DNA of 25,223 nt from a virus, in the IMG/VR virus record IMGVR_UViG_3300022723_000287, positions 1 to 25,223 of that record; one strand, given 5' to 3'. A program made the translations under genes and the position numbers. The notes beneath the pieces are model-generated. The model saw only the letters and a list, made by a program, of their open reading frames with translations. It was not told the DNA's origin and ran no database searches. Shown here one piece after another: positions 1 through 23,100 of this stretch; position 1 is the first letter of the stretch, and each line of letters opens with the position of its first letter.

Positions 1-384
1 TCAGGCGAACACCCGTCCCGGCTGCTCGTCCCACGGTAGCGAGGCGACGAAGCACAGGTCGTAGAGGCTGATCGCGCAGGGCTCGCGGCGCACGACCAGC
101 CGCTCGAGGACATCCGGCGCCAGCCATGCGAGGCGCAGGAGGCGGCTGACGTAGCGGTCGGACAGGCCCTCCTCGGCGGCGAGATCCGCGATGGTGGTGA
201 TCTCGGCGCGCTCCAGTCGCTTTCGCCACGCCCATGCCCGGCCGATGGCGCGCATCACGCGGGGATCCTGTCCCGGCGCCGGGCCCGACGTCTCGATGTC
301 CTTCGGCGGCAGGATGCGCGGCCGCCCGCCGCGCTTGCGGACCGTGAGCGGGATGTGAACGCGGATCGTCTGGTTTGCGGGCAT
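1..384 (-). CDS. 127-aa HTH-like protein downstream of serine recombinase
   Basis: Complete small ORF whose start overlaps the recombinase stop by one base (TGATG on the minus strand), so it is the last visible gene of the recombinase operon. The N-terminus is basic (KRGGRPRILPP). Residues about 45-95 carry a Trp/Arg-rich helix, then an AAEEGLSDRYVSRLLRLAWLAP segment that looks like a helix-turn-helix. From memory, a similar segment forms the C-terminal tail of some large serine recombinases and sits in ParB-like proteins, so this may be a DNA-binding accessory or a split-off tail of the recombinase. That role is inference from position and motif. The protein ends exactly at the window edge with its own stop codon. 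Confidence 0.65.
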   Translation of the reverse strand: MPANQTIRVHIPLTVRKRGGRPRILPPKDIETSGPAPGQDPRVMRAIGRAWAWRKRLERAEITTIADLAAEEGLSDRYVSRLLRLAWLAPDVLERLVVRREPCAISLYDLCFVASLPWDEQPGRVFA

Positions 385-1709
385 CAGGCTGCGTCCTCCT
401 GCGCAGGCGTCATCAGGCTCGCCAGCGCGCCGAGCCCGTCATGGCGCAGGTCGATGTCGAGGCCGTCCTCGCCCGCCGTCACGCGCGCGACGAGCAGCTG
501 GACGACACGAGCCTGCTCGGCCGGGATCAGCGATTTCCAGAGATCTTCGAATTGCGTCAGCGCCGCGGTCACGGTGGCCTCGTCGAGGTCGGGCCGCTCC
601 TTTTTCAGGACGCGGGCGGTGCGCGCGATGATCTCCGGCGTGCGCAGCAGCCGTCGGATCTCGCCGATGACCGCTTCCTCCACCACGGCCGCGGGCAGCC
701 GCTGGGGCCCGCGCAGCTCGGCCGTGGGCCGCTTCTGGATCACGTCCATCGAGACGTAGTAGCAGTACCGCCTGTTGTCCTTCTTGGTGTGGTGCGGGGT
801 CATCGCGGCGCCGGTCTCGGTGAAGATCAGCCCGTGCAGCAGCGCCGGTTCGGTGCTTCGCGTGCGCCCGGCGCGCTGGTTCCGGTTGCCGGCCAGCACG
901 GCATGGGCGGCGTCCCACAGATCGGCATCGACGATTGGCTCGTGCATGCCCGGATAGGTCTCGCCCTTGTGGGTGATCTCGCCGCGGTAGATGCGGTTGT
1001 GCAGCAGCTTGTAGAGCGCCCCGCGGTCGATGGGCCGGCCGCGCTTGGACCGGATGCCGCGGGCGTTCAGCTCCCGGATTACGGCGGCGGTTGAATCGGA
1101 CTGCGCGAAAAGCTCGAACATGGTCCGCACCTGCGCCGCCTCGGCCGCGTTCACGATCAGCTTGCGGTCGACCACGTCGTAGCCGAGCGGGACGTAACCG
1201 CCCATCCACATGCCCTTCTTCTTCGAGGCGGCGACCTTGTCGCGGATCCGCTCGCCGATCACCTCGCGCTCGAACTGGGCGAAGCTGAGCAGGATGTTCA
1301 GCGTCAGCCGTCCCATGGACGTGGTGGTATTGAAGGACTGCGTGACGGATACGAAGGTCACGCCGTTGCGGTCGAAGATCTCGACCAGCTTCGAGAAATC
1401 CATCAGCGCGCGGCTGAGGCGGTCAATCTTGTAGACCACGACCACGTCGATCAGCCCATCCTCTACATCGGCGATCAGCTGCTTGAGCGCGGGGCGGTCC
1501 AGCGTGCCGCCGGAGAACCCGCCATCGTCGTATCGCTCGCGCAGGCAGGCCCAGCCCTCGGCGCGCTGGCTCGCGATGTAGGCCTCGCAGGCCTCGCGCT
1601 GCGCGTCGAGGCTGTTGAACTCCATGTCGAGCCCTTCCTCGCTCGACTTGCGGGTGTAGATGGCGCAGCGCAGGCGGCGCGCCGGTTCGGTCTGGGTTTT
1701 TCTGGTCAT
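384..1709 (-). CDS. Large serine recombinase (resolvase/invertase family)
   Basis: 441-aa site-specific recombinase. An N-terminal resolvase domain (about residues 12-160) carries the YTRKSSEEG motif with Ser22 at the catalytic nucleophile position, and DVVVVYKIDRLSRALMDF with the conserved Arg residues. A recombinase domain (about 185-290) includes GGYVPLGYDVV and a YKLLHNRIYRGEITHKG segment. The HTKKDNRRYCYYVS region normally accompanies a zinc ribbon, but paired CxxC motifs are absent. I chose the ATG at 1709 because GGAGGT lies 5 nt upstream; a longer ORF reading from 1811 would start inside the intron's domain V. The protein is the likely integrase of the element. Its start overlaps the DUF2924 stop (ATGA) once the intron is removed, which implies translational coupling. 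Confidence 0.93.
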   Translation of the reverse strand: MTRKTQTEPARRLRCAIYTRKSSEEGLDMEFNSLDAQREACEAYIASQRAEGWACLRERYDDGGFSGGTLDRPALKQLIADVEDGLIDVVVVYKIDRLSRALMDFSKLVEIFDRNGVTFVSVTQSFNTTTSMGRLTLNILLSFAQFEREVIGERIRDKVAASKKKGMWMGGYVPLGYDVVDRKLIVNAAEAAQVRTMFELFAQSDSTAAVIRELNARGIRSKRGRPIDRGALYKLLHNRIYRGEITHKGETYPGMHEPIVDADLWDAAHAVLAGNRNQRAGRTRSTEPALLHGLIFTETGAAMTPHHTKKDNRRYCYYVSMDVIQKRPTAELRGPQRLPAAVVEEAVIGEIRRLLRTPEIIARTARVLKKERPDLDEATVTAALTQFEDLWKSLIPAEQARVVQLLVARVTAGEDGLDIDLRHDGLGALASLMTPAQEDAA

Positions 1710-3391
1710 CGCGCACCTCCGGTCTGGTCGAGATGAACGTGGGGGCAGGGCGCCGTGTCGGGATTGCTCCCGCCGGTTTCCCCACCCCCCGTTCCCGAAC
1801 CCGGCGTGCACCTTTCGTTATGCACCGGGCTCTCCGGACCTGTCTGGGCATAGTCGGGGTATTGCAGCCGCTTCAGAGAGTGGCGCTCCACCTTGAGATC
1901 GGCGACGATGGCCAACGGCCGGTGATCCGTCCATTGACTTCGGTTTCGATCCGGCAGGCGATGCCAGTATCGGCGATAGACCCCCCGGCGGGAGGTGTAG
2001 GGGTACTTCTTGCGCAACCACCGCCAGACCCGTCCCCACGCATAATGGTCGATGCGCGTGAACACGGCCTTTGCGCCGTGGCAGTGCCGATAGAAGCGGC
2101 CCCAGCCGAGCAGAAGCGGGTTGAGCGCCGCGATCACCTCCCGGAGTGGAAGGTTCCGATGCGCCCGTGTGGTCAGAGCCTTCACGCGGTGGCAGAGGTC
2201 CTTGGTCCGGTCCTTCGGGATTTCCAGCCGGGGCCAGTAGCCCCATCGGTCGTCCCAGCGCAGCCGTACCCGGTGACCGAGGAAGATGAACCCCTCGGTC
2301 AGGGGCGTGACATGCGTCTTTTCCGGCGAGAGCGTGAGTTTCAACTCATCCGCCAGAAAGGTGGCAAGTTCCTCCTTCTCCTCCCGGGCCTGATCTTCGG
2401 TTCCCGTGACGAGCACCACGAAATCGTCCGCATACCGGATGGGCAGGAACACCGGTCGTCCCGCCTTGCGTTCGCTGTGGCGGTATTTCCGGATGGCATC
2501 GCCGGGGCGGGCATATTCACCGCCGTCGCGCTTGCGGCGCGGGGCGATGAACCTGGCGTAGCGTTCCTCTATGGCCGCCAAGGTGATGTTGGCCAAGAGA
2601 GGCGACAGCACGCCGCCCTGTGGGGTCCCGGTCTCGGTGCGCGTGAAAGCGCCCTCGCTCAGCACCCCTGCCTTGAGGAAGGACCGCACGAGCCGACACA
2701 CCCGTCCGTCGCCGACCCGCCGTCTCAGGCGCGTCATGACATGGTGATGGTCGATATTGTCGAAACAGCCCTTGATGTCCCCTTCGATGACCCACTGGTA
2801 CGGCGGATGGGACCGATCTGTTCCGGGCGACGGCTTGGTCGGACGGATCGCGTTCCGGATATGCTCCAGAGCATCGCGACACGCCCGCTTGGGACGAAAC
2901 CCGTACGAGACGGGCAGGAAGCCCGCCTCGAAGATCGGTTCCAGCATCTGCAGGACAGCAGCCTGAACGACCCTGTCCCGGACCGTAGGCACACCCAGCG
3001 GCCGGAACTGGCCCGGTTTTCCGCGTTTGGGGATCATCACGCGCCTGACCGGCGTCGGGTGATACTCCGCGGTGCGGAGCATCGCCCTCGTATCGGTCAG
3101 GAAGCGTTCGACCCCGTGGCGGCGCTGGATGGACCGCACGGTCACCCGGTCCGAACCCGCCGAGCGTGCCCCGCGATTGCTCGCGATGCGCCGCCACGCC
3201 ATCCGGAGGTTGCGGGGGTCGGTGACCCAGTTCCACATGTCCCGGTAGGCGCTGTCAGGTTCGGCCCGACTCCACCTGTAGAGTTTGCCTTGAATGTCGA
3301 GAAGCCACGCCTTGTCAGCCTGATAAACGGAGTCCACCGTTCCTTTCTCCTTCTTGCACATCTCCACACACGTCCTGGTCCCCTTCGCCAT
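1706..3391 (-). CDS. ltrA: Group II intron-encoded reverse transcriptase/maturase
   Basis: 561-aa LtrA-type protein. Reverse transcriptase motifs are visible in order: RT1-2 around residues 110-150 (PVRRVMIPKRGKPGQFRPLG), SYGFRPKRACRDAL (162-175), EGDIKGCFDNIDH (203-215), GTPQGGVLSPLLANI (255-269), and the catalytic RYADDFVVL with YADD at 320-323. A maturase X domain follows (about 395-480, GWGRFYRHCHGAKAV). No HNH endonuclease domain follows it. The ORF has no stop inside the intron. Its last ~45 residues are read from domains V and VI and the 3' exon, and it stops at 1706 in the same frame and stop codon as the spliced DUF2924 gene. The start at 3391 is uncertain; Met11 at 3361 is an alternative. 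The protein should promote splicing and retrohoming of the intron. Confidence 0.92.
   Translation of the reverse strand: MAKGTRTCVEMCKKEKGTVDSVYQADKAWLLDIQGKLYRWSRAEPDSAYRDMWNWVTDPRNLRMAWRRIASNRGARSAGSDRVTVRSIQRRHGVERFLTDTRAMLRTAEYHPTPVRRVMIPKRGKPGQFRPLGVPTVRDRVVQAAVLQMLEPIFEAGFLPVSYGFRPKRACRDALEHIRNAIRPTKPSPGTDRSHPPYQWVIEGDIKGCFDNIDHHHVMTRLRRRVGDGRVCRLVRSFLKAGVLSEGAFTRTETGTPQGGVLSPLLANITLAAIEERYARFIAPRRKRDGGEYARPGDAIRKYRHSERKAGRPVFLPIRYADDFVVLVTGTEDQAREEKEELATFLADELKLTLSPEKTHVTPLTEGFIFLGHRVRLRWDDRWGYWPRLEIPKDRTKDLCHRVKALTTRAHRNLPLREVIAALNPLLLGWGRFYRHCHGAKAVFTRIDHYAWGRVWRWLRKKYPYTSRRGVYRRYWHRLPDRNRSQWTDHRPLAIVADLKVERHSLKRLQYPDYAQTGPESPVHNERCTPGSGTGGGETGGSNPDTAPCPHVHLDQTGGAR
1715..1720 (-). 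promoter_or_regulatory. Ribosome binding site of the recombinase
   Basis: GGAGGT on the minus strand, 5 nt before the ATG at 1709. It lies in the predicted 3' exon of the group II intron, so the intron does not separate the site from the recombinase gene. It fixes the recombinase start at 1709. Confidence 0.75.
1735..1794 (-). ncRNA. Group II intron domain VI with bulged branch-point A
   Basis: On the minus strand GAACG (1794-1790) pairs with CGUUC (1739-1735), and GGGGG (1789-1785) pairs with CCCCC (1745-1741). A single unpaired A at 1740 lies between the two 3' strands. The apical hairpin CGGGA-GCAA-UCCCG (1772-1759) ends in a GNRA tetraloop. The bulged A is followed by seven bases to the predicted 3' splice site, the spacing normal for lariat-forming group II introns. 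Confidence 0.8.
1797..1832 (-). ncRNA. Group II intron domain V
   Basis: A 36-nt hairpin on the minus strand. GAGCCCGG (1832-1825) pairs with CCGGGUUC (1804-1797) over 8 bp. Next come a short bulge, a distal UGCA/UGCA stem, and a loop containing CGAAAG. The AGC catalytic triad is present at the second to fourth bases. Length and layout match the usual ~34-nt domain V. It lies inside the 3' end of the reverse transcriptase reading frame. Confidence 0.87.
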
Positions 3392-3940
3392 GTGGCCGGC
3401 TTTCCCGGCCTCGGACTACTACGGGACCTCTGCCCCCCGGCACGGTCATGGCCCGACTTCGAAGGTGTGCCGCCCGCGCAGGCGGACGGCGGCCATGCCG
3501 GGGTTCCGGCGTTCCGATCGAGAACCCTTGGATCGTTAGGCGGTCTGCTCTACCCCAGAGCGCTCTGCCCGACGGCCATGATGAGGGGCCGTCGGTCATG
3601 CCATTGTCGCGGCATGCCCAGACCGGTTTCGGTAGCCGGTCCGGATCGCGCGCCGTACATCCCCGCTGCCTCGTAAGGGATGGTGTGCGTTTAGGTGCTG
3701 AGGCTTCAGGCACAGACTTCGTTTCCTCGCCATGGATCCTGCGGTAGCCCGGCTCCGGGGAGGACAGCCCCTTGTCCGGACAGTTCAGACCGCTCGGCTA
3801 TTTTCATCCGGAATGTCGAATCCCATTCCGAACTCGCGGCCCCCTTTCGACTATGCTCATCTCATAGTGAGGCGGCTCCTTTGACCGCCGGTCTTCGATC
3901 AGTTGTGGGCACGGTTACACTCATTTACCGTTTGAACTCA

Positions 3941-4447
3941 TTACCTTGTGCGCGTCCGTGCCCGGGCGCCGCGCACCCCGAAGAACCGCCAGCCATTCCA
4001 GTGCGCCCCGGTGATCGCACGGACCGCGGCCGACAGCGACTTGAAGCGCCGGCCTTGCCATTCGAAGCCGTCCGCCAGAACGGTGACCATGTGCTCCTCG
4101 CCGCCCCACTCGCGAACCAGCTTCGTGCCGGGTGCTGGCTTGCGCGGGTCCGCCACCATGCCGCCCAGCTTGCCGCTCATGACCTCGTCCGCCAGCGCGT
4201 CGAGCGTGCGGCGCGTCTCGCGGCGCAGCCCGCCATGGGCCAGTTCCTGGATGCGGTAGCCGAGCCGAAGCTCGAGGTTGCCGCGGCTGGCGTTCGGCGC
4301 GCGTTCCCCGAAGATGGCCTGCCACTTCTCCTGTAGGTCGGGCACCGTCATCGCCTTAAGCGCGGTCAGTTCGGCCAAGACGTCGATCCTCTCCGCCTGG
4401 GGCGCGGGTGCGTCCTGTGCGTCTGATTTCCTTGCGTTTTTCCTCAT
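3941..4447 (-). CDS. DUF2924 family protein, split by the group II intron
   Basis: Contiguous ORF of 168 aa, of which residues 1-157 (4447-3977) are the true first exon. The last 11 residues (VRGARARTRTR) are intron read-through. The core has family features: LAELTALKAMTVPDLQEKW near the N-terminus, ELRLGYRIQELAHGGL, GTKLVREW, and the C-terminal FEWQGRRFKSLSAAVRAITG...NGWRFFG. After splicing, eight codons from 1732-1709 (LDQTGGAR) plus TGA complete a 165-aa protein whose stop overlaps the recombinase ATG. The start at 4447 has GGAG 7 nt upstream. DUF2924 proteins travel with serine recombinases in alphaproteobacterial elements; their biochemical role is unknown, and a directionality or DNA-binding helper is only a guess. 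Confidence 0.88.
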   Translation of the reverse strand: MRKNARKSDAQDAPAPQAERIDVLAELTALKAMTVPDLQEKWQAIFGERAPNASRGNLELRLGYRIQELAHGGLRRETRRTLDALADEVMSGKLGGMVADPRKPAPGTKLVREWGGEEHMVTVLADGFEWQGRRFKSLSAAVRAITGAHWNGWRFFGVRGARARTRTR

Positions 4448-4662: not shown

Positions 4663-4793
4663 GGGGAGCGAACCTTCTGAGGCGGTTTGCTCCGTGTTCG
4701 CCGGTCTCGACGATGTAACTCAAGTTAAAACAATGGGTTGTCGTATGCCTGCGTGCTCATGCGCAGCTTATGGTGTCCGGCGCTGAGATGACG

Positions 4794-7235
4794 TCATACG
4801 CCAATCTGGGCAACATTTAGGTTCGCGATCGCCGTTTCTACTTCGGTGTAGAGGTCAGCCTCAACATCACCGGCATCCAATTCAACCACAAGCGCAAAGC
4901 GCGCCGCCTTCTGGTCGACGTTCTGAACCGACTTGGATTTCCACCAACCCGCCACTGGGTGGACGGCGAGAAGATTTCGCCGTGCGAGGTCCGAGGCGGG
5001 ACAACGAAGCTCATCGATGTGCAGGGAACCCACGTCGCGCCGGTTGCGACCAAAAACCCAGCCGTCATTGTCCGCTACCGGATCGGCATCCGGGTCATTG
5101 GCCAGTTTGTTTATCCGGGCCTGGAATTGCGCATGGTTCTCACTGGCTCGGTTCAGCTTGAACCGCAGGTTGTGGGAGGCATAGCGGAATTTCGAGCCGC
5201 GAGCCGCTTCCGAAGGATTGGGTTCGACGAAAGTGCTGAGTGCCACGCGAAGAGTGACTTCGGTCGCGCCCAGCTGCCGGAGCGCCTCTCTCGGCCAAGG
5301 TAGCTGGAAGAACTTCATCTGGTTGTGGACGGGCTCTGCTCCGGCAGATGTGCTCGGCCGATATGGGACTATCGTGTCCTGGACGATGAGAGATAATGCG
5401 TTCGCAGCGCTGCGTCGTGCGCGCGTTGGATCCGGAACACCGTAGCCGTATCGCTGAAACAGTCGAACGAAGTCGCCCTTTGATGGATTTGCCGGAAGGT
5501 GCGCCTCCATCTGCTGCGTCCATCGCGCAGACGAAACGAAAATCGCCCGGATCGTTTCCGGCCACAGGTGTGGGTAGTCTTCCCAGAGCTCGGTGATCGC
5601 TTTGGCCGCCAGCGCCGTCGCGGCGCTTGTGTCAGAAGTCGTCGTTAGCGACCGCATTGGGTATTGGTGGTCCGTTGTAAGCAGCGAGAGCGCCGGGTGA
5701 TTCAACGGCGGCGGAACGTGATCCTGAACCCAGTTCCCGCCTTCCATCACGATGTCGGGCTTGATCGGCCAATGCTTGGACCAGCTTGCGGTACGCGATG
5801 ACGGTGCCAGATCGCCCAAGGGCGCAATTGCCTGCCCGGGCAGGCCAGCAGGCAACCTCACCTTTTCCGTGTAAGCGCCGACACAGATAGAGTTCCAAGC
5901 TTGAGCCGGTGACTCAATCTCGTGATCAGGGTCGTCACAAATCGATAGGTAGTCGCCGCCTCGGAAGAGGTTCTGGTCCGTGTTGCCCGCCGAGATCACG
6001 AACAGCCGCTGTCGATGCTGATTGCCCGACACCCCAGCTGTCAGCTGATCGATCTCGCTCGACCATGAAGTCGGTGCGCCGTCATGAGGTGTGTCTTCGT
6101 CGGTAGTGCTGGCCATCGAAAAGGTTCGGCCACGCTCGGCATTCGCCTCGACCGCGTTGACGGCATTCAGCACTACTGCTCCCAGCAGATGGTGAGGGTT
6201 CTGGCCAGCATCAGGGATGATCTTCGCGGACTCGAGCCGATGCCTGACATGAACCGGCATATTGCTCTGGATCACTGGCAGCAGATCTCCGTAGAGCGAA
6301 AGGCCCGCTAACTGCGTACCGTGCCCACGGGTGTCATCTAGCCCCCAACCGGGTTCCGCTGCGTGACGGTCGCCCGGGTCAAGGAAAGGCCGAACCAATG
6401 GATGGTTCAACCCGATGCCGCTATCGAGGAGCGTAATGTATCGCGGATCCGCTGCGTCGGGCGGCTGCAACAGGCCCTCCATCGCTTGCGCCCACTCGGC
6501 CTGTTCCTCAGGCGGCATGCCCTCGAAAAAGTCGGACAGGACCGTTGGGGCAGCGAGCGCCTTCACAGTTCCCAAATGGCGAACGGCCGCAGCGATTTGG
6601 TCGTGCGTTCCATGACCGACAACGACAATGTCTTCGGGAAACTCAAGACGGCCGCCTTCCCAGCGGATCCCGAAACGCTCTGCCCCGTGGAGAAAAGATT
6701 CGTCTTCCGCCCGATTGAGCCAGATTTCCCACGGATGTTCTGGACCTTGGGCAGGAAACCTTTCAGGCGGGCTGCGCCAAAGAGCGCGCAAGCCAGCTTC
6801 CATAATGGCTGAAATGCTTTGAACCAAGTCTGCGTTCTTCGGGCGATCTCCCTGTGTTCTTTGTTCTGGGAACGCTTCGAACGCCTCCACCTTCCTCCTG
6901 AGTTTGCTCACACCGGTGGAAGTAGCAAAAACAGTAGCACGTGCCGGAGCTGCGTCATTCTCAGGGTCTGTGACGCTGAGAAGGTGGAGGCCACTGGCAT
7001 CCAGGCTCTTCGTCACGAATGGCTCGTTCGGCCTGCCTTGAAACTCGAGATAGACGCCCGGACGATTGTCTGCGGCTGGATCTCCGAGGTCATCGATCGC
7101 GCGAAGTAAGCTCTGAGCGTGTGCTAGGCGATCTGGAACATCACTTGGTTTTCTTGTTCTCGGACTGCTTTTTGCTCGAAACGCGACTGCCCGACCGAGG
7201 CCGTTCACGATCAGATGGGGGCGATTTCGTTCCAT
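4794..7235 (-). CDS. Subtilisin-like serine protease (S8 family), partner of AAA+ ATPase
   Basis: 813-aa protein without a signal peptide, so probably cytoplasmic. A complete S8 catalytic set is visible: Asp271 in YITLLDSGIG, His305 in TRGHGTQLAGL, oxyanion Asn418 in VISAGN, and nucleophile Ser537 in TTTSDTSAATALAAK. The ~260 residues before the protease domain include an RPHL motif at residues 6-8 region and a second His-Gly-Thr (207-210) that is not part of the triad. About 270 C-terminal residues form an unassigned, partly beta-rich domain. The start at 7235 overlaps the 3' end of the ATPase gene by 95 nt. I keep it because the conserved-looking RPHL follows directly. The protein likely degrades or cleaves targets presented or sensed by the ATPase; the substrate is unknown. 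Confidence 0.93.
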   Translation of the reverse strand: MERNRPHLIVNGLGRAVAFRAKSSPRTRKPSDVPDRLAHAQSLLRAIDDLGDPAADNRPGVYLEFQGRPNEPFVTKSLDASGLHLLSVTDPENDAAPARATVFATSTGVSKLRRKVEAFEAFPEQRTQGDRPKNADLVQSISAIMEAGLRALWRSPPERFPAQGPEHPWEIWLNRAEDESFLHGAERFGIRWEGGRLEFPEDIVVVGHGTHDQIAAAVRHLGTVKALAAPTVLSDFFEGMPPEEQAEWAQAMEGLLQPPDAADPRYITLLDSGIGLNHPLVRPFLDPGDRHAAEPGWGLDDTRGHGTQLAGLSLYGDLLPVIQSNMPVHVRHRLESAKIIPDAGQNPHHLLGAVVLNAVNAVEANAERGRTFSMASTTDEDTPHDGAPTSWSSEIDQLTAGVSGNQHRQRLFVISAGNTDQNLFRGGDYLSICDDPDHEIESPAQAWNSICVGAYTEKVRLPAGLPGQAIAPLGDLAPSSRTASWSKHWPIKPDIVMEGGNWVQDHVPPPLNHPALSLLTTDHQYPMRSLTTTSDTSAATALAAKAITELWEDYPHLWPETIRAIFVSSARWTQQMEAHLPANPSKGDFVRLFQRYGYGVPDPTRARRSAANALSLIVQDTIVPYRPSTSAGAEPVHNQMKFFQLPWPREALRQLGATEVTLRVALSTFVEPNPSEAARGSKFRYASHNLRFKLNRASENHAQFQARINKLANDPDADPVADNDGWVFGRNRRDVGSLHIDELRCPASDLARRNLLAVHPVAGWWKSKSVQNVDQKAARFALVVELDAGDVEADLYTEVETAIANLNVAQIGV

Positions 7236-8223
7236 TCAGCGATGTTCCAAGTCCTTGCAACGAACGCCTGCGCTCTATCGAAGCGATCAGCGTCTCCGTC
7301 AGAATTCGGTCTGTCGAGGACAAGACGGCGCGTCTTCCCGCGTCTTCGCCCGCAGCAACAACATCTGCCGTCGAAAGGCCTTCCGCAACCCTAGATACAG
7401 CGTCCCAATCCACATCGTCTACGTTGAAGCCGATCAAGCGCCGCCGCATCGCTTTCTGCACAGCTTCCCTTGAAGGTAGCTCATAGGGCAGCACCAGCTC
7501 GAAACGCCGAAGAATCGCCCTGTCGAGAATCTCAGGAATATTCGTGGTGGCCACCACGATCGACGGTCCTGTGTCCTCATCTAGGAACTGCAGGAATGAG
7601 TTCAGGATACGCCTTGCTTCGCCAACGTCATTCTCGTTCCCGCGAGATGCAGCCAGCGCGTCGATTTCGTCGAACAGATAGACACCGCGGGTCGTACGGA
7701 TCGCATCAAATATCAGGCGCAGTTTCTGCGCAGTTTCACCCATGAATTTGGTTATGAGTCCGTGCAGGAGCACTGTGAACAATGGGAATTTCAGCTCACC
7801 AGCCAATGCCTCTGCACTCAGCGTTTTTCCCGTCCCCGGCGGACCCGAGAAAAGAAGGCGTCGGCGTGGATGCAGACCTTTTTCCTCCAGAAGGTCACGT
7901 TTCCGAGTCTCGACCACGATCTGGCGCAGCTCGTCGGAGAGGTGGTCCGGTAAGATCAGATCGTTGAGAGTGGTTGTCGGATAGCGTGCACCCAAGATGC
8001 CGGCGAGATCGCCGCGCGGCGCGGCCAGCGGTGTCAGCTTTGCAGTAGAACTGGTCTTTGGAACGCGCGATGCCTCCGCCCACTGGCGCAGCTGTTCCGC
8101 CAGTCGTGTGTGGCCGCGCTGCTCTTCCGCGGCGGCAAGCTGCATCGCGAGATCGAAGAAACGCTCTTCATCCCCCTCCGCATGGCTCTTAACGAGCCCG
8201 ATAAGTTGCTGTGCCGACGCCAT
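7141..8223 (-). CDS. AAA+ ATPase, partner of S8 protease
   Basis: 360-aa single-module AAA+ protein of the classic (FtsH/VPS4/26S-like) type. Walker A is GPPGTGKT at 127-134, Walker B VYLFDEID at 181-188, sensor 1 ATTN at 225-228, and arginine fingers Arg239-Arg240. The pore-loop region FMGETAQKLR follows. Residues 1-60 form a helical N-terminal part, and the last 30 residues are a basic, low-complexity tail (KKQSENKKTK). AAAGG lies 8 nt before the ATG. It is first in a two-gene unit with the S8 protease, overlapping by 95 nt. The plausible role is ATP-driven recognition, remodelling or delivery of a protein to the protease, or gating of protease activity. Base composition here and in the protease gene is visibly less GC-rich than in the phage genes, suggesting separate acquisition. 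Confidence 0.95.
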   Translation of the reverse strand: MASAQQLIGLVKSHAEGDEERFFDLAMQLAAAEEQRGHTRLAEQLRQWAEASRVPKTSSTAKLTPLAAPRGDLAGILGARYPTTTLNDLILPDHLSDELRQIVVETRKRDLLEEKGLHPRRRLLFSGPPGTGKTLSAEALAGELKFPLFTVLLHGLITKFMGETAQKLRLIFDAIRTTRGVYLFDEIDALAASRGNENDVGEARRILNSFLQFLDEDTGPSIVVATTNIPEILDRAILRRFELVLPYELPSREAVQKAMRRRLIGFNVDDVDWDAVSRVAEGLSTADVVAAGEDAGRRAVLSSTDRILTETLIASIERRRSLQGLGTSLNGTKSPPSDRERPRSGSRVSSKKQSENKKTK

Positions 8224-8290
8224 TTTCGAGCCTTTACGACTTTCTCGGCGCAGCCTAAACTCCCGCGCCTTTCTCCATTGTTTAGCAATG

Positions 8291-8312
8291 TCGCTGGCTG
8301 ATGTGCCAGCGA
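8291..8312. promoter_or_regulatory. Perfect palindrome upstream of the ATPase-protease pair
   Basis: TCGCTGGC and GCCAGCGA (8 bp each) are separated by TGATGT. The palindrome lies 68 nt before the ATPase ATG in the 154-nt gap 8224-8377. Just downstream, on the minus strand, TTGCTAAACA resembles an extended -10 box. No T-run follows the palindrome, so an intrinsic terminator is less likely than an operator or activator site. This is inference from sequence only. Confidence 0.42.
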
Positions 8313-8377
8313 AACCGGTCCTGCGACCTGAGTTTTTCGGTCACGTTGCCGAGGAGACTCAACGCCGCCTCGGGCGA

Positions 8378-9109
8378 TCAATGCCGCGTCGCCCCACGAG
8401 CCACCCCATCTGTTTCCAGCCGCAGCGTCGCCCGCCACAGCGGTGTCTTCATGAACACGGCCTCCTCGAAGCGATCCCTCGCCGTGCCACGCCCCTGCTG
8501 CAGCAGCCCCACCCAACAGAGCGGTCTCAGCACCTGGATGTAGAGTTGCCCCATCACCTCGTCATAGCGCGGGCGCGTTCCCGTCTCAGGTTCGCCGAAG
8601 AGCACGCCGCGGAGGTGGGCGCCGGTGGCGCCGTTCTCGGACTCGACGTTGAGCACGTTCAGGAACACGTCCCAGTTGTCCAGGATCGGCGTGTCGTCGA
8701 ACCGCGAAATGCTGGCGTGGTTGATCCGGAACAGGAAGAACGGGACGACCGTGCCGAAGATGCGGCCCGGATGGCCCGCCAGCGCCTGGCCAGCCTTGGT
8801 TGGCCGGAATTCGCCCTTGTAGTGCCGCCCGAGCTTCATCGCGATCATCAGGTCGTGCAGCACCATGAGCGGGACGAAATCGGGCTCGTTCAGCACCTTG
8901 TTGACGGCGAAGAGGTCCGCTTCTGTGTGGCCGGGCCAGTCGAATTCGGTCGCGGCCCAGTGCACGAACACCCGCTTGAACGCCTTGGAAGGCGTCAGAG
9001 GGATGCCGCCATGCTCGCCGATCCAGGCGAAAGTCTTCTCCACCCCGCGCACCATCGGTGAGAACGCCAGCGCCGGATCGGCATCGTCGACCTCGCGGAA
9101 CGCGATCAC
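8378..9109 (-). CDS. 243-aa protein of unknown function, downstream of S24 repressor
   Basis: I place the start at GTG 9109, one base after the repressor stop (TGA-G-GTG). The in-frame extension to 9271 is an antisense shadow of the repressor. The protein has a mixed helical layout: LTPSKAFKRVFVHWAATEFDWPG (about 40-65), a leucine-rich LHDLMIAMKLGRHYKG followed by RPTKAGQALAG (about 85-115) that resembles a winged-helix, and a C-terminal LRPLCWVGLLQQGRG...KTPLWRATLRL (about 195-235) with a similar character. I do not recognise a named family. The coupling to a CI-like repressor suggests a regulatory or superinfection role, but that is a guess. Its original promoter, upstream of the repressor, has been lost. 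Confidence 0.72.
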   Translation of the reverse strand: MIAFREVDDADPALAFSPMVRGVEKTFAWIGEHGGIPLTPSKAFKRVFVHWAATEFDWPGHTEADLFAVNKVLNEPDFVPLMVLHDLMIAMKLGRHYKGEFRPTKAGQALAGHPGRIFGTVVPFFLFRINHASISRFDDTPILDNWDVFLNVLNVESENGATGAHLRGVLFGEPETGTRPRYDEVMGQLYIQVLRPLCWVGLLQQGRGTARDRFEEAVFMKTPLWRATLRLETDGVARGATRH

Positions 9110-9110
9110 C

Positions 9111-9298
9111 TCAGATCTCTCGCGCGAACCAACGGATGCGGCCGACGATGTGGATCTCGTCGGCCGTTCGCTCGTAGGGGCTGTAGAAGCCGTTGTCCGA
9201 GATGACGCGTACGGCGGGCGGGTCGCTGTTCGGGATGTGCTCGAGCCGCTTGGCGACAAGCCCCATGCCATCGTCCAGCACGAAGATGCCGGGTGGGT
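9111..9298 (-). pseudogene. S24 (CI/LexA-type) phage repressor, C-terminal remnant
   Basis: The 60 or so residues from PPGIFVLDDGMGLVAKRLE to DEIHIVGRIRWFAREI match the C-terminal half of S24 peptidase-type phage repressors. GLVAKRLE supplies the Lys of the Ser-Lys autocleavage dyad; YSPYERTADEIHIVGR is the usual C-terminal strand pattern. The N-terminal helix-turn-helix and the catalytic Ser region are absent. Upstream of about 9298 the sequence turns into the opposite-strand capsid gene. An ORF can be read up to 9374, but its first residues are antisense capsid. The repressor is therefore truncated and has no native start or promoter. Confidence 0.8.
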
Positions 9299-9522
9299 TC
9301 GCCGAGCCCCGGCTCGATGCGGCGAGCGAGACCGCCTGGTATCTGGCGGCCAGCCCGAACCAGATCGACACCATCGAATACGCCTATCTCGAGGGCCAGC
9401 AGGGCGCCTACATCGAGACGCGCAACGGCTTCGACGTGGACGGCGTCGAGATCAAGTGCCGCCTCGACTTCGGCGCCAAGGCCATCGACTGGCGTGGCCT
9501 CTACAAGAACCCCGGCGCGTGA
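9298..9522 (+). pseudogene. Major capsid protein (protease-capsid type), C-terminal remnant
   Basis: The frame from FAEPRLDAASETAWYLA through IDTIEYAYLEGQ, IETRNGFDVDGVEIKCR and LDFGAKAIDWRGLYKNPGA to TGA at 9520-9522 has the hallmark ending of major capsid proteins fused to ClpP-like prohead protease in alphaproteobacterial siphoviruses. That identification is from memory of the family. Only the last 74 codons are present. The upstream in-frame Met at 9193 lies in repressor sequence and is not a native start. The N-terminal several hundred residues and all head genes normally upstream (terminase, portal, protease) are missing. Confidence 0.8.
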
Positions 9523-10787: not shown

Positions 10788-11333
10788 TCAGCCCAGCGTC
10801 GCGCGCACGTTCGCCATCGGAATGAAGATGCGCTGCGGGTTCTGAGGGTCGCCGAGCGACCGGAAGCCGAGTTCTTCGTAGAATTTCCAGCGACGGTCGA
10901 AGTGATCGTCCTTGAGCACATCGAGGACGATGGCCGCAGCACCCATCTGATCGGCGATCCCGAGGCAGCGCCGCATGGCGTCCACGACGAGGGCGGTTCC
11001 AAGCCCTTTGCCCTGCATGTCATCGCGCACGGCAACCGCGCGGATGTAGATGACAGGGATGTCGGGCACACCGGCGCGTTGCCATTTCCCGGGGCCGAGA
11101 TCCGCTCGGACGGCCATCGCGCCGAGAGTGTAAAAGCCCAGCACGGCAGGATCATCGCCAGCTGTGGCAATCCACGCAGCGACCATTCCGGTCTTGATCT
11201 GGTCCGAGAGCGACGACTTCAGGAAGTTGTCGATGGGGCCAAAGCCACAAGTGAAGGCGCTGCGGTCATGCAGCGCCTTGTCGAATTTCGCGATCGTCAG
11301 AGCGGGCGCGTCCGCCGCGGTCTCAGCCGGCAT
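10788..11333 (-). CDS. GNAT acetyltransferase toxin (TacT-like)
   Basis: 181-aa GNAT enzyme on the strand opposite to the tail genes. It starts with the TacT-type pattern FTCGFGPIDNFLKS (27-40). Acetyl-CoA binding motif A is AVRDDMQGKGLGTALV (101-116, with QGKGLG). Near the C-terminus is FYEELGFR with Tyr152 as the likely general acid. TacT-family toxins acetylate aminoacyl-tRNA and halt translation, and are neutralised by a DUF1778 antitoxin such as the gene upstream. The two ORFs overlap by 11 nt. The gene ends 14 nt from the stop of the convergent fused connector gene. Confidence 0.9.
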   Translation of the reverse strand: MPAETAADAPALTIAKFDKALHDRSAFTCGFGPIDNFLKSSLSDQIKTGMVAAWIATAGDDPAVLGFYTLGAMAVRADLGPGKWQRAGVPDIPVIYIRAVAVRDDMQGKGLGTALVVDAMRRCLGIADQMGAAAIVLDVLKDDHFDRRWKFYEELGFRSLGDPQNPQRIFIPMANVRATLG

Positions 11334-18677: not shown

Positions 18678-18807
18678 CGGGGGCTGCGCCTCCTATGCCG
18701 AGGCGCGGCTCGCCCGGCCGGCTGCCGAGACCGTCGCGGAGGTGCCGCCGGACTGGGCGGACTGGATCGCCGATCTCGACGACCGAATGACGGGAACCTG
18801 CCGATGA
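18607..18807 (+). CDS. Outer-membrane spanin lipoprotein candidate (Rz1-like)
   Basis: 66-aa protein with a short signal peptide and lipobox (VAALAILLTGC, modified Cys16). It overlaps the i-spanin gene by 71 nt in a different frame, the arrangement typical of Rz/Rz1 pairs. The mature part is small, with ARLARPAAETVAEVPPDW. It would bridge to the i-spanin and fuse inner and outer membranes during lysis, which also implies a Gram-negative host. Its stop overlaps the next start (ATGA). Confidence 0.72.
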   Translation: MRFVTVAALAILLTGCAATMGTGDGGCASYAEARLARPAAETVAEVPPDWADWIADLDDRMTGTCR

Positions 18808-19688
18808 AATCCTTCTCGTCCGCCCTGCAGGCCCATCTCGACGAGGGCACGACCACGCTCGCCTGGTGCTGGCGGATCACGCGGGCCGACGGCGTCACCT
18901 TCGGCTTCACCGACCATGACCGGACGCTGAGTTTCGACGCGACCGACTTCGAGCCCGAGACCGGCCTCACGGCCTCCGAGGTGCGCTCGGGCTCGGACCT
19001 GTCCGTCGATGCGCAGGACGCGGAAGGCGTGCTGACCTCGGACCGGATCACCGAGACCGATATCCTCGACGGCCGCTGGGACAACGCCGAGGTCGAGGTC
19101 TGGCGGGTGAACTGGGCCGACACGGGTCAGCGCGTCCTCATGCGACGCGGGGCCATCGGCCAGATTCGGCGCGGGCGGCTGGCCTTGGTCGCCGAGGTGC
19201 GTTCGCTCGCGCATGTGCTGGGTCAGACAGTCGGGCGGACCTTCCAGGCGACCTGCGACGCGGCGCTTGGCGATACGCGCTGCGGCGTCGATCTGGAGGA
19301 TCCCGCCTTCAAGGGAACTGGCGCCGTCATCGACCTGCTGCGCGACCGGGCCTTCACCGCCTCGGGCCTCGGCGGCTTCGAGGCGGGCTGGTTCACTTTC
19401 GGCACCATCGAATGGACCAGCGGCTCTAACGCGGGGCGTCAGGCCGAGGCGCTGGGCCATGACGTGACGGATGGCGTCGCGATCCTGACGCTGCTCGAAG
19501 CGCCGGTGCGGGCCATCGCCGAGGGCGACGCCTTCACCATCCGCGCCGGCTGCGACAAGCGCATCGAGACCTGCGGGGCGAAGTTCACGAATACAGTCAA
19601 CTTCCGCGGCTTCCCGCATATCCCCGGCCAGGACACGATCCTGCGCTACGCCAGCCGGGACGGCGGACATGACGGAGGCGTGCTGTGA
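18804..19688 (+). CDS. DUF2163 tail hub protein (RcGTA g13-like)
   Basis: 294-aa protein. The N-terminal DUF2163 region (LDEGTTTLAWCWRITRADGVTFGFTDHDR) is followed by beta-rich sequence, and the C-terminal domain ends in NTVNFRGFPHIPGQD. Four cysteines, in TCDAALGDTRCG (151, 160) and AGCDKRIETCG (250, 257), are placed as expected for a metal site. Lambda gpL and the gene transfer agent hub hold an iron-sulfur cluster by comparable cysteines, so a [4Fe-4S] cluster is likely here. It forms the hub between tail tube and baseplate. Confidence 0.9.
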   Translation: MKSFSSALQAHLDEGTTTLAWCWRITRADGVTFGFTDHDRTLSFDATDFEPETGLTASEVRSGSDLSVDAQDAEGVLTSDRITETDILDGRWDNAEVEVWRVNWADTGQRVLMRRGAIGQIRRGRLALVAEVRSLAHVLGQTVGRTFQATCDAALGDTRCGVDLEDPAFKGTGAVIDLLRDRAFTASGLGGFEAGWFTFGTIEWTSGSNAGRQAEALGHDVTDGVAILTLLEAPVRAIAEGDAFTIRAGCDKRIETCGAKFTNTVNFRGFPHIPGQDTILRYASRDGGHDGGVL

Positions 19689-20119
19689 ACCCGGCCGATC
19701 CGGATCGGGTCATCGCCGCGGCGCGAACCTGGCTCGGCACGCCCTACCACGATCAAGCGAGCCTCCGCGGCGTCGGCTGCGACTGCCTCGGACTCGCCCG
19801 TGGGGTCTGGCGCGAGATCGTCCGTCCCGAGCCGTTCCCGATCCCGCCCTACAGCCGCGACTGGGGCGAGACCGGCCCGCGTGAGGTTCTGGCCGAGGGC
19901 GCGCGCGCCATGATGATCGAGGTGTCGCCCGCCGAGGCGGGCCCCGGCGCGCTGGTCCTCTTCCGCATGAAGCCGCGCGCCATCGCCAAGCATGTTGGGA
20001 TCCTGACTGGGTCCGATACCTTCCTCCACGCCTACGAGCGGCTCGGCGTGATCGAGGAACCGCTCACCGTGTCCTGGCGGCGGCGCATGGCATTCGCCTT
20101 CCTGTTCCCGCAACGCTGA
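19685..20119 (+). CDS. NlpC/P60 family tail peptidase (RcGTA g14-like)
   Basis: 144-aa cysteine peptidase starting at GTG 19685 (GTGA overlap with the hub stop; GGAGG 6 nt upstream). Catalytic Cys34 lies in GCDCLGLARG, His103 in AKHVGILTG, with His115 (FLHAY) a candidate third residue. The TWLGTPYHDQASLRGVGCDC opening is typical of phage tail NlpC/P60 enzymes. It should cut peptide cross-bridges of peptidoglycan locally during DNA entry. Confidence 0.93.
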   Translation: MNPADPDRVIAAARTWLGTPYHDQASLRGVGCDCLGLARGVWREIVRPEPFPIPPYSRDWGETGPREVLAEGARAMMIEVSPAEAGPGALVLFRMKPRAIAKHVGILTGSDTFLHAYERLGVIEEPLTVSWRRRMAFAFLFPQR

Positions 20120-20128
20120 GACCCCGAC

Positions 20129-23100
20129 ATGGCCACTCTCGTTCTCGGTGCCGCTGGCGCCGCCATCGGCGGTTCGATAGGCGGCGCGATCCTCGGCGTG
20201 AGCGCTGCGACCATCGGCGGCTTCATCGGCTCGACCATCGGCTCGGTCGTCGACAGCTGGATCATCTCGTCGCTGGCGCCGACGCAGCGCATCGAGGGCG
20301 CTCGGCTCGACACGCTGCGCATCACCTCCGCTACAGAAGGCGCGGTCATCCCGCGGCTCTACGGTCGCATGCGCATGGGCGGCAACATCATCTGGGCGAC
20401 CGATTTCCGCGAGGAGACCAAGACCACCACGCAGGGCGGCGGAAAGGGCGGCGGGGGCGGCAAGGTCAAGACCACCGAGTATCTCTACTACGCCTCCTTC
20501 GCCGTCGCGCTCTGCGAGGGCCCGATCACCGGCATCGGGCGCATCTGGGCCGACGGCAAACCAATGGACCTCTCCGGCGTCACCTGGCGCTGGTATCCCG
20601 GCGACGAGGCACAGACGGCGGACCCTTTCATCGCGGCCAGGATGGGGGCGGCCAGCACGCCGGCCTACCGCGGCACGGCCTATGTGGTCTTCGAGGAGCT
20701 GGCGCTCTCGACCTACGGCAACCGCCTGCCGCAACTTTCCTTCGAGGTGTTCCGACCGCTCGCCGACCCCGATACCGCCGAGGGGCTGACCCGCGCCGTC
20801 ACCATGATCCCGGCCTCGGGCGAGTTCACCTACGCGACGCAGGCGATCCGCAAGACCGATGGCGGCGCGACGGTGCCCGAGAACCTGAACGCGCTCTCGG
20901 ACACCGCCGACATGGCGGTGGCGCTCGACCGTCTGCAGGCCATGGCGCCGAAGGTGGAGAGCGTGAGCCTCGTGGTCGCCTGGTTCGGGAACGACCTCCG
21001 TGCGGGCGAGTGCACGATCCGCCCGGGCGTCGAAGTCTCGGCGAAGACCACGAGCCCGCAGACCTGGTCGGTGAATGGCGTCAGCCGCGCCAGCGCCTTC
21101 CTCGTCAGCCGCGACGACGAGGATCGTCCCGTCTATGGCGGCACGCCGTCCGACTTCGCGGTGGTGCAGGCCATCCAGGAGATGAAGGCGCGCGGGCTGC
21201 GCGTCACCTTCTACCCGTTTATCCTGATGGACGTGCCGCTCGGTAACACCCTGCCGAACCCGTATTCCGACAACGCGGCCGAGACGGGCCAGCCTGTATT
21301 CCCCTGGCGCGGCCGGATCACCTGTTCTCCAGCGGCGGGTTTCGCCGGGACCGTGGACAAGACCGCCACGGCGGCCGCGCAGGTCGCGGCGCTGTTCGGC
21401 GCGGCCACGCCCGCCAGCTTCAGCGTCTCGGGCGAGAGCGTCAGCTGGACCGGGCCATCGGGCGACTGGGGCCTGCGGCGCATGGTGCTGCACTACGCCC
21501 ATCTCTGCGCGGCGGCAGGCGGGGTGGATGCTTTCCTTATCGGCACCGAGATGCCGGGGCTGACGACGATCCGCTCGAGTGCGTCCATCTATCCGGCGGT
21601 GCAGGCCTATCGGGACCTCCTCGCGGATGTCCGCTCGATCCTCGGGGCCGAGACGAAGATCGGCTATGCGGCCGACTGGTCGGAGTATTTCGGGCACCAG
21701 CCGGGCGACGGCTCGGGCGACGTGTTCTTCCACCTCGATCCGCTCTGGGCCGATCCGGAGATCGATTTTGTCGGCATCGACAACTACATGCCGCTCTCGG
21801 ACTGGCGCGACGGCTTCGAACATGCCGACGCGGCCGAGGGCTGGCCCGCGATCTATGACCGGGCCTACCTGCAGGCGAACATCGCGGGCGGCGAAGGCTA
21901 CGACTGGTTCTACGCCAGCGCCGCCGACCGCTCCGCACAGGTCCGCACCCCAATTACCGATGGGGCGGCGGCCAAGCCGTGGGTCTTCCGCTACAAGGAT
22001 CTGCGCGCCTGGTGGTCGAACCCGCATTACGACCGCCCCGGAGGCGTGGAGAGCGGGACGCCCACGGCGTGGACGCCGGAGTCCAAGCCGATCTGGTTCA
22101 CCGAGCTTGGCTGTCCGGCCATCGACCGCGGCACCAACCAGCCGAACGTCTTCTTCGACCCGAAGTCGTCGGAGAGCTTCACGCCGCATTTCTCGCGAGG
22201 CTGGCGCGATGACGCCATCCAGCGGGCGTATCTCGAGGCGACGTACCTCTGGTGGGGCACCCCGGCAAATAACCCGGTGTCCTCGATCTACGGTGGCCGG
22301 ATGGTGCACGTCCCCGAATGCGCCGCATGGACCTGGGACGCGCGGCCCTATCCGTTCTTCCCGGCGCTGACAGACGTCTGGACGGACGGGGCGAACTGGC
22401 GGCTTGGTCATTGGCTGACCGGGCGGCTCGGCGCGGTGTCGCTGGCGGCGCTCGTGCGGCACCTCTGCCTGCGCGCCGGGCTGCCCGAGTCCCGGATCGA
22501 TGTCACCGGGCTCTGGGGCGCGGTCGAGGGCTACGCCATCACGGCGCTGGAAAGCCCGCGCGCCTCGATCACCACGCTCGCGCGGCATTTCGGCTTCGAC
22601 GCGGTCGAGACCGAGGGCGTAATCCGCTTCGTCATGCGCGGCCGGGCGGCGGTGAAGAGCGTCGGCCCCGACGATCTCGCCGCGCCTCGCGAGGGTGATA
22701 TCCTCGAACTGACCCGTGGTCAGGAGACCGAACTGCCGCAGGCCCTGAAATGGCAGGTCGCCCGCGCCGACGAGGATTACGAGGCCGCGCAGGTCGAGGC
22801 ACGGCGCATCACCGTCGACACGACCCGCATCGCCTCTGAGTCCTTCCCCATGGCGGTGCCGCCCGAGGAAGCCGAACGGCGTTGCCGCCGCGCGCTGATG
22901 GAGGCGTGGGTGGGCCGCGAGACGGCGGCGTTCCGTCTGCCGCCGTCGCGGCTCGTGCTCGACCCGGCCGACCCAATCCGGCTCGCGCATGACGGGCGGC
23001 TGGTCGATCTGCGGCTCGTCTCCATCGCCGATGCAGAGGCGCGCGGCATAGAGGCGGTCCGCCAGGACCGGGCGACCTACGACCTGCCGCCCGGCGATCC

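What the first reader, a model, noticed from the sequence alone, without database searches (positions are those of the whole stretch)
4794..8223. AAA+ ATPase plus cytoplasmic subtilase cargo pair in a prophage: candidate defence or abortive-infection system
An intact AAA+ ATPase and an intact S8 protease (Asp271, His305, Asn418, Ser537) form a two-gene unit with a 95-nt overlap. They sit between the recombinase operon and the repressor remnant, where prophages often carry accessory genes, and are less GC-rich than the phage genes. The protease has no signal peptide and large unassigned N- and C-terminal domains. An ATPase sensor controlling an intracellular protease would suit anti-phage defence or toxin activation. 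To my knowledge the pair recurs in bacteria, but I cannot tie it to a named system.
Basis: partly seen in the sequence, partly recalled or inferred. Interest (0 to 1): 0.62.

Follow-up and report, generated by a model that had tools for sequence, protein, structure and literature searches.

The report
IetAS defence cassette in prophage hotspot
The gene pair is a divergent member of a known bacterial anti-phage/toxin-antitoxin system (IetAS: an ATP-driven motor plus a cell-internal protease), carried in a slot where related prophages swap different, mostly defence-like, genes or carry nothing.

Summary
An AAA+ ATPase (7141-8223, -) and a subtilase (4794-7235, -) overlap by 95 nt. The pair does have a name: PADLOC identifies it as IetA and IetS (NCBIfam 'IteA/IteS'), although it scores far below NCBIfam's equivalog cut-offs, so it is a divergent subfamily. 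Homologues tested by others act as toxin (protease) and antitoxin (ATPase).

The context supports a defence role. Against the empty site of a related prophage, the pair is a self-contained 3.63-kb, low-GC cassette (4746-8375) between the gene after the prophage repressor and the promoter region of the DUF2924/recombinase operon. In relatives the same slot is empty (18 contigs) or holds other cargo (11 kinds in 15 contigs, window included), among them PD-Lambda-4, PifA, a GmrSD protein and a second, divergent IetAS. It is a prophage defence hotspot of the P2/P4/Vibrio kind. IetA models as a PAN/proteasome-ATPase-like motor.

Best reading: a TA-type, probably abortive-infection, defence cassette. 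Trigger and protease target are unknown. The system is known; this member, its subfamily and this hotspot appear new.

The parts
4746..8375 (-). Exchangeable cargo cassette holding ietA-ietS with its own upstream region
   Evidence: Flanks align to the empty site of L025, where 36 nt stand in place of these 3,630 bp; same two edges, within a few dozen nt, for 11 kinds of cargo
4794..7235 (-). IetS: cytoplasmic subtilase (813 aa), catalytic D271/H305/S537, N418 oxyanion
   Evidence: PF00082 E=1.5e-46; PADLOC IetS PDLC02198 E=1.2e-31; residues located, invariant
7141..8223 (-). IetA: AAA+ ATPase (360 aa), Walker A 127, Walker B 183, pore-loop F160-M161-G162
   Evidence: PF00004 E=4.9e-30; PADLOC IetA PDLC04232 E=1.3e-69, residues 1-319; fold nearest to PAN/26S Rpt ATPases
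7141..7235 (-). 95-nt overlap: variable disordered tail of IetA (326-360, pLDDT<50) over the conserved N-terminus of IetS
   Evidence: the same overlap in relatives down to about 60% identity
8224..8375 (-). Cassette's own upstream region (promoter not identified by the sigma-70 scan)
   Evidence: About 140 nt conserved in relatives that lie outside this slot (L005, L008, L010, L126)
8378..9130 (-). Anchor gene of unknown function after the repressor (conserved part = residues 48-297 of the 297-aa ORF); absent or disrupted in some cargo-bearing relatives
9118..9305 (-). Remnant (last ~62 aa) of the HTH-S24 prophage repressor
   Evidence: 88-100% identical to intact repressors in most slot-bearing relatives
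4720..4745 (-). Conserved right edge of the slot, CGACAACCnnTTGTTTTAACTTGA, presumed promoter/operator of the DUF2924-recombinase operon
   Evidence: Shared by the filled and empty slots compared
3941..4447 (-). Anchor: DUF2924 gene (its last ~12 codons here are read from intron sequence)
   Evidence: PF11149 E=1.8e-47
384..1811 (-). Anchor: serine recombinase / phage integrase (its first ~26 codons here are read from intron sequence)
   Evidence: PF00239, PF07508; phrog_95 integrase E=2e-107

Best explanation
The pair is a divergent IetAS module carried as exchangeable cargo in a prophage defence hotspot. Shown here: an intact, selected ietA-ietS operon, homologous to IetAS, in a discrete cassette that alternates with other defence genes or with nothing. 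Inferred: IetA is a PAN/proteasome-ATPase-like hexameric motor that holds the cytoplasmic subtilase IetS in check or controls its maturation (antitoxin role). When a phage or competing element disturbs IetA, or makes a protein that IetA or IetS senses, IetS is unleashed, cleaves essential host or phage proteins, and the infected cell stops growing or dies. The same logic stabilises the element that carries it.
For: Family: PADLOC IetA 1.3e-69 and IetS 1.2e-31; NCBIfam IteA 3.8e-57 and IteS 1.3e-7, both below cut-off. Coupling: IetA is just upstream in all 11 family genomes with a long IetS frame and in the fetched loci whose IetS 5' end is present. Selection: dN/dS 0.02-0.11. Hotspot: empty site L025; 11 kinds of cargo with common edges; PADLOC finds PD-Lambda-4 (5e-265), PifA (1.6e-234), Orf5/HEC-06 (7.9e-185) and a second IetS (3.9e-287) there, while eight of nine backbone genes of the window tested give no hit or only a marginal one, the exception being the intron reverse transcriptase. 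Motor: IetA fold closest to PAN/Rpt/FtsH, pore loop conserved in 13 of 14. Literature: SgiAT of SGI1, protease toxin and ATPase antitoxin shown in E. coli (PMC5006074); Mycoplasma TA132/3 likewise (PMC8562856); IetAS on Pf prophages (PMC11878078).
Against: No experiment on this pair. IetS matches PADLOC models only over about residues 258-805, so the N-terminal third is divergent and the target may differ. Both NCBIfam equivalog cut-offs are missed by far (30 of 900 and 194 of 510 bits). The Pf-phage study could not make an IetAS lysogen, so its resistance link is correlative. The IetS structure model is too poor (pLDDT 46) to judge its domains. Plasmid and plasmid-like contexts fit pure addiction as well.
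Confidence: 0.8

Rival explanations
1. Addiction/stability module: IetAS keeps the prophage or plasmid in the cell by killing segregants and excluding incompatible elements; anti-phage activity is incidental or absent.
For: The founding pTiC58 pair is described by its title as determining stability and incompatibility (Yamamoto 2009, cited); SgiAT promotes maintenance of SGI1; 455 plasmid records carry a homologue, most on conjugative plasmids; L006/L007 homologues look to sit beside ParB/RepB-like genes (by eye).
Against: The slot's other cargos with strong family matches are defence genes rather than other TA addiction modules. The host prophage is already a deletion remnant, yet the pair shows purifying selection against relatives, which addiction to an excisable element explains less well.
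Confidence: 0.3
2. Phage-serving gene: the pair acts for the prophage itself (virion protein maturation, repressor cleavage/induction), not as a host-protecting system.
For: It sits next to the lysogeny region; proteases have such roles in phages (general knowledge).
Against: It is absent from 18 related contigs with the same anchors and replaced by unrelated genes in others; the homologue is common on plasmids without phage genes.
Confidence: 0.04
3. Ordinary housekeeping protein quality control (an ATP-dependent protease) picked up by a phage.
For: IetA resembles PAN/FtsH/Rpt ATPases in sequence and fold.
Against: Patchy: 18 of 295 genomes have any IetS match; low-GC mobile cassette; toxic homologues in the literature.
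Confidence: 0.03

Closest known systems
IetAS (IetA/IetS of pTiC58; PADLOC IetA/IetS; NCBIfam IteA/IteS)
   Same: Adjacent AAA+ ATPase then S8 peptidase, profile matches to both, catalytic and Walker residues kept, mobile-element context
   Different: Well below the NCBIfam equivalog cut-offs; N-terminal third of IetS not matched by PADLOC models; carried by a Rhodobacterales-type prophage; genes overlap by 95 nt
SgiAT of Salmonella genomic island 1 (PMC5006074)
   Same: AAA-ATPase antitoxin and subtilisin-like protease toxin in one operon; related by its authors to pTiC58 IetAS
   Different: Island maintenance is the demonstrated role; sequence not compared directly here
Mycoplasma TA132/3 (PMC8562856)
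   Same: AAA-ATPase (353 aa) + subtilisin-like protease (757 aa) operon with neutralisation shown
   Different: Chromosomal in mycoplasmas, no phage test reported in the passages read; sequence not compared directly
Prophage antiviral hotspots of P2/P4 and of Vibrionaceae/Bacillales prophages (Rousset 2022, PMC9122126)
   Same: Small slot (~1-5 kb) with high gene turnover between conserved phage genes; the Vibrionaceae one also lies between repressor and integrase
   Different: Different phage family (GTA-like tail genes, serine recombinase + DUF2924); no entry for IetAS in that paper's main text

Membership tests
IetAS (PADLOC) | IetA-like AAA+ ATPase matching family profiles | tested here: met
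   PDLC04232 E=1.3e-69 over residues 1-319; three further IetA models
IetAS (PADLOC) | IetS-like S8 peptidase matching family profiles | tested here: met
   PDLC02198 E=1.2e-31, profile 248-781 of 795; N-terminal third unmatched. PADLOC's own per-system cut-offs were not available
IetAS (PADLOC) | The two genes adjacent on one strand, ATPase first | tested here: met
   95-nt overlap; same order in relatives
IetAS (PADLOC) | Intact catalytic triad and Walker motifs | tested here: met
IetAS (PADLOC) | IetS toxic, IetA neutralises it | not testable with these tools
   Shown by others for SgiAT and Mycoplasma homologues
IetAS (PADLOC) | Protects cells against phage | not testable with these tools
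   Needs plaque assays; the family is listed as anti-phage in PADLOC/NCBIfam
NCBIfam IteA/IteS equivalogs (NF042959, NF042956) | Score above curated equivalog cut-off | tested here: not met
   194 of 510 bits and 30 of 900 bits: homologous, not the same isofunctional group
pTiC58 IetAS | Direct sequence similarity to the founding pair | not tested
Prophage antiviral hotspot (Rousset type) | Same anchors with diverse, unrelated cargo or none | tested here: met
   11 kinds of cargo in 15 contigs (window included), 18 empty contigs
Prophage antiviral hotspot (Rousset type) | Cargo enriched in known defence genes | tested here: met
   5 of 11 kinds with strong PADLOC matches (window pair, PD-Lambda-4, PifA, Orf5/HEC-06, second IetAS), 2 weaker (NsnA, DitA); backbone control nearly negative
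Prophage antiviral hotspot (Rousset type) | Cargo shown to block phages | not testable with these tools
   Needs experiments

The most novel reading that the evidence does not exclude
IetA and IetS form a true ATP-dependent protease: a PAN-like unfoldase ring that threads a phage-derived or infection-marked substrate into, or pulls an inhibitory N-terminal domain out of, a cytoplasmic subtilase. That would be an AAA+/subtilase immune protease, unlike the AAA+ proteases with ClpP-, HslV-, Lon-, FtsH- or proteasome-type peptidases.
Probability: 0.25. Interest if true: 0.65.

Novelty: new member of a known kind. Interest (0 to 1): 0.38.

Why it matters
IetAS is listed as an anti-phage system, but its mechanism was still described as unknown in 2025 (PMC11878078). 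A natural prophage-borne pair with a defined cassette, an empty site and close relatives is a good test object. The slot itself is a ready source of untested candidates: four kinds of cargo found at the same edges (L018, L022, L050, L051) match no defence profile, or only marginally.

Tried and rejected
Structure of IetS: the AlphaFold2 model from 15 sequences has mean pLDDT 46, so no fold search was run on it. A beta-alpha-beta-beta-alpha-beta run at 167-228 (block pLDDT ~57-84) just before the catalytic domain looks like a subtilase pro-domain, but this is only a hint. No solved structure is similar in sequence to IetS. A wider viral scan with the alignment gave only four more loci. The phage collection has just two records with a match, both without annotation. 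Promoter and terminator scans gave nothing above chance. Repeats at the cassette edges: none convincing, so no transposon-like mechanism is proposed; exchange by homologous recombination in the conserved flanks is a guess. The inverted repeat TCGCTGGC-6-GCCAGCGA upstream of ietA was considered as an operator, but it is not kept in more distant relatives. Reading the pair as a housekeeping protease was rejected for its patchy distribution. The papers on pTiC58 IetAS (Yamamoto 2009) and of Gao 2020 are not held; what they show rests on citations in other papers and on memory.

Full report
What is there. The window is a 25,223-base virus record of IMG/VR. On the minus strand it carries a 360-aa AAA+ ATPase (7141-8223) followed by an 813-aa S8 peptidase (4794-7235), overlapping by 95 nt. 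All four are invariant in an alignment of 15 relatives, one of them only 25% identical. The ATPase has Walker A, Walker B and RRFE motifs and a pore-loop-like F-M-G. Outside the overlap dN/dS against four relatives is 0.05-0.11 for the protease and 0.02-0.05 for the ATPase. Both genes are therefore intact and under purifying selection.

Which family. PADLOC profiles name the pair IetA (E=1.3e-69) and IetS (E=1.2e-31). NCBIfam points to the same family under the spelling IteA/IteS, but the scores are far below its equivalog cut-offs (194 of 510 and 30 of 900 bits). I read this as a divergent subfamily of a known system, not as the isofunctional group NCBI curated. The IetS match begins only at about residue 257, so the N-terminal third is not covered. 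In other papers the ATPase/subtilase pair is a toxin-antitoxin module: SgiAT of Salmonella genomic island 1, with protease toxin and ATPase antitoxin shown in E. coli (PMC5006074), and Mycoplasma TA132/3 (PMC8562856). Both cite the pTiC58 pair (Yamamoto 2009). IetAS is listed among anti-phage systems; a 2025 study of Pf prophages correlates it with resistance and calls its mechanism unknown, but could not obtain the IetAS lysogen (PMC11878078).

How it is distributed. Among 295 genomes of one relative's family, 18 have any IetS match. Eleven have a long IetS frame, and all eleven have an IetA match just upstream on the same strand (pairing read off the two tables). A twelfth, G100, has IetA followed by a split IetS. 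Plasmids carry many homologues: 455 records, 373 covering 80% or more of the query, most of them conjugative. This is accessory, mobile distribution, not a core gene.

The slot. Three IMG/VR relatives (L002, L003, L004) have the pair between the same anchor genes; in L004 the contig ends inside IetS, so only one flank is seen. Scans with the anchor gene o297 and with the recombinase brought in about a hundred related contigs. In 18 of them the o297-DUF2924 gap is only about 340-425 bp, i.e. empty; in 15, the window included, the slot holds cargo (counts made by hand from those tables, one contig counted once). Comparing the window with the empty site of L025, the left flank matches up to 2 nt past the o297 stop codon and the right flank from 4745 leftwards, so the cassette is 4746-8375, with 36 nt in its place in L025. 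The other cargos share the same edges to within a few dozen nt. In five of them (L045, L046, L047, L048, L051) o297 itself is missing and cargo follows the repressor directly.

What else sits there. Eleven kinds of cargo were seen. By PADLOC: PD-Lambda-4 (L017, 5e-265), PifA (L045, 1.6e-234; L048 has a near-identical protein), Orf5/HEC-06 GmrSD (L046, 7.9e-185) and a second, very divergent IetAS (L047: IetS 3.9e-287, IetA 34% identical to the window's), besides the window's own pair. Weaker: NsnA-like GmrSD_N (L019, 1.5e-35) and DitA-like (L024, 2e-15). No or only marginal hit: L018 (SLFN_AlbA_2 by Pfam), L022 (596 aa), L050 (the 443-aa protein), L051. As a control, nine backbone genes of the window were scanned: seven gave nothing, DUF2924 a marginal hit (4e-5), and only the group II intron reverse transcriptase gave strong, generic RT hits. 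Two IetAS pairs of different subfamilies in one slot, among other defence genes, is the strongest contextual argument. Caveat: PADLOC models cover candidates as well as proven systems, and the set of contigs was gathered by similarity to this window, not sampled at random.

This is the arrangement Rousset and colleagues described for P2, P4, Vibrio and Bacillales prophages: small slots of about 1-5 kb between conserved phage genes, in Vibrionaceae between repressor and integrase (PMC9122126). I found no mention of IetAS in that paper's main text, and a paper search for Rhodobacter prophage hotspots returned nothing that I recognised as this one; that search was narrow.

Mechanism. The IetA model (pLDDT 74.6) has a three-helix N-terminal domain, a linker, the AAA+ core and a disordered tail; the tail is the part whose codons overlap IetS. 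Its nearest solved folds are 26S Rpt subunits, PAN and FtsH, and the pore loop is aromatic-hydrophobic-Gly in 13 of 14 relatives. I infer a threading motor. Whether the motor restrains IetS, matures it or feeds it is not known. The IetS model is too poor to use. My committed reading is a TA-type, probably abortive-infection, defence module: IetA keeps IetS inactive until infection upsets the balance, then IetS cleaves essential proteins. Steps shown here: intact pair, family, coupling, cassette, hotspot. Steps shown by others for homologues: toxicity and neutralisation. Steps inferred: trigger, motor-protease contact, target, cell death.

Prophage state. Only the last ~62 aa of the repressor remain, joined at about 9305 to a capsid-like C-terminus on the other strand (the capsid assignment is by eye); relatives have whole repressors of about 225-230 aa, some read here as longer ORFs. 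A group II intron (1733-3977) sits at the DUF2924/recombinase junction. The prophage is probably defective, yet the cargo is intact.

Verdict. Observation confirmed and interpretation supported, with the correction that the system already has a name. New: a divergent member in a Rhodobacterales-type prophage and a prophage defence slot with several untested cargos.

Noticed in passing
window 1733-3977 (RT/maturase 1706-3391, -): Group II intron inserted at the DUF2924/recombinase junction; absent from relatives L017, L045, L046, L047.
   Followed up: partly
window 9118-9522: C-terminal ~62 aa of an HTH-S24 repressor (-) joined by deletion to a capsid-like C-terminus (+): probably a defective prophage.
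   Followed up: partly
L047:3252-7071: A second, very divergent IetAS pair in the same slot, with a 71-aa ORF upstream that by eye resembles a small DNA-binding regulator.
   Followed up: partly
L018:8747-10270; L022:9005-10795; L050:5431-7178; L051:5706-7189: Slot cargos with no, or only marginal, defence-profile match (SLFN_AlbA_2 protein; 596-aa protein; 138+443 aa pair; 399+95 aa pair): candidate new defence genes by position.
   Followed up: partly
L003:6001-8435 (= L009, L038, L058): IetS is frameshifted near codon 102 and the IetA pore loop reads F-K-G instead of F-M-G: decayed copy or sequencing error.
   Followed up: no
window 20129-24094 and 18804-20119 (+): Tail genes of the gene-transfer-agent type (GTA_TIM, Rcc01698_C, NlpC/P60) in a prophage.
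   Followed up: no
window 10788-11333 (-): GNAT acetyltransferase on the strand opposite to the surrounding structural genes: another cargo gene.
   Followed up: no
L126:4438-8469: IetAS next to the same kind of repressor but, by eye, with a tyrosine-type integrase instead of the DUF2924/serine recombinase.
   Followed up: no
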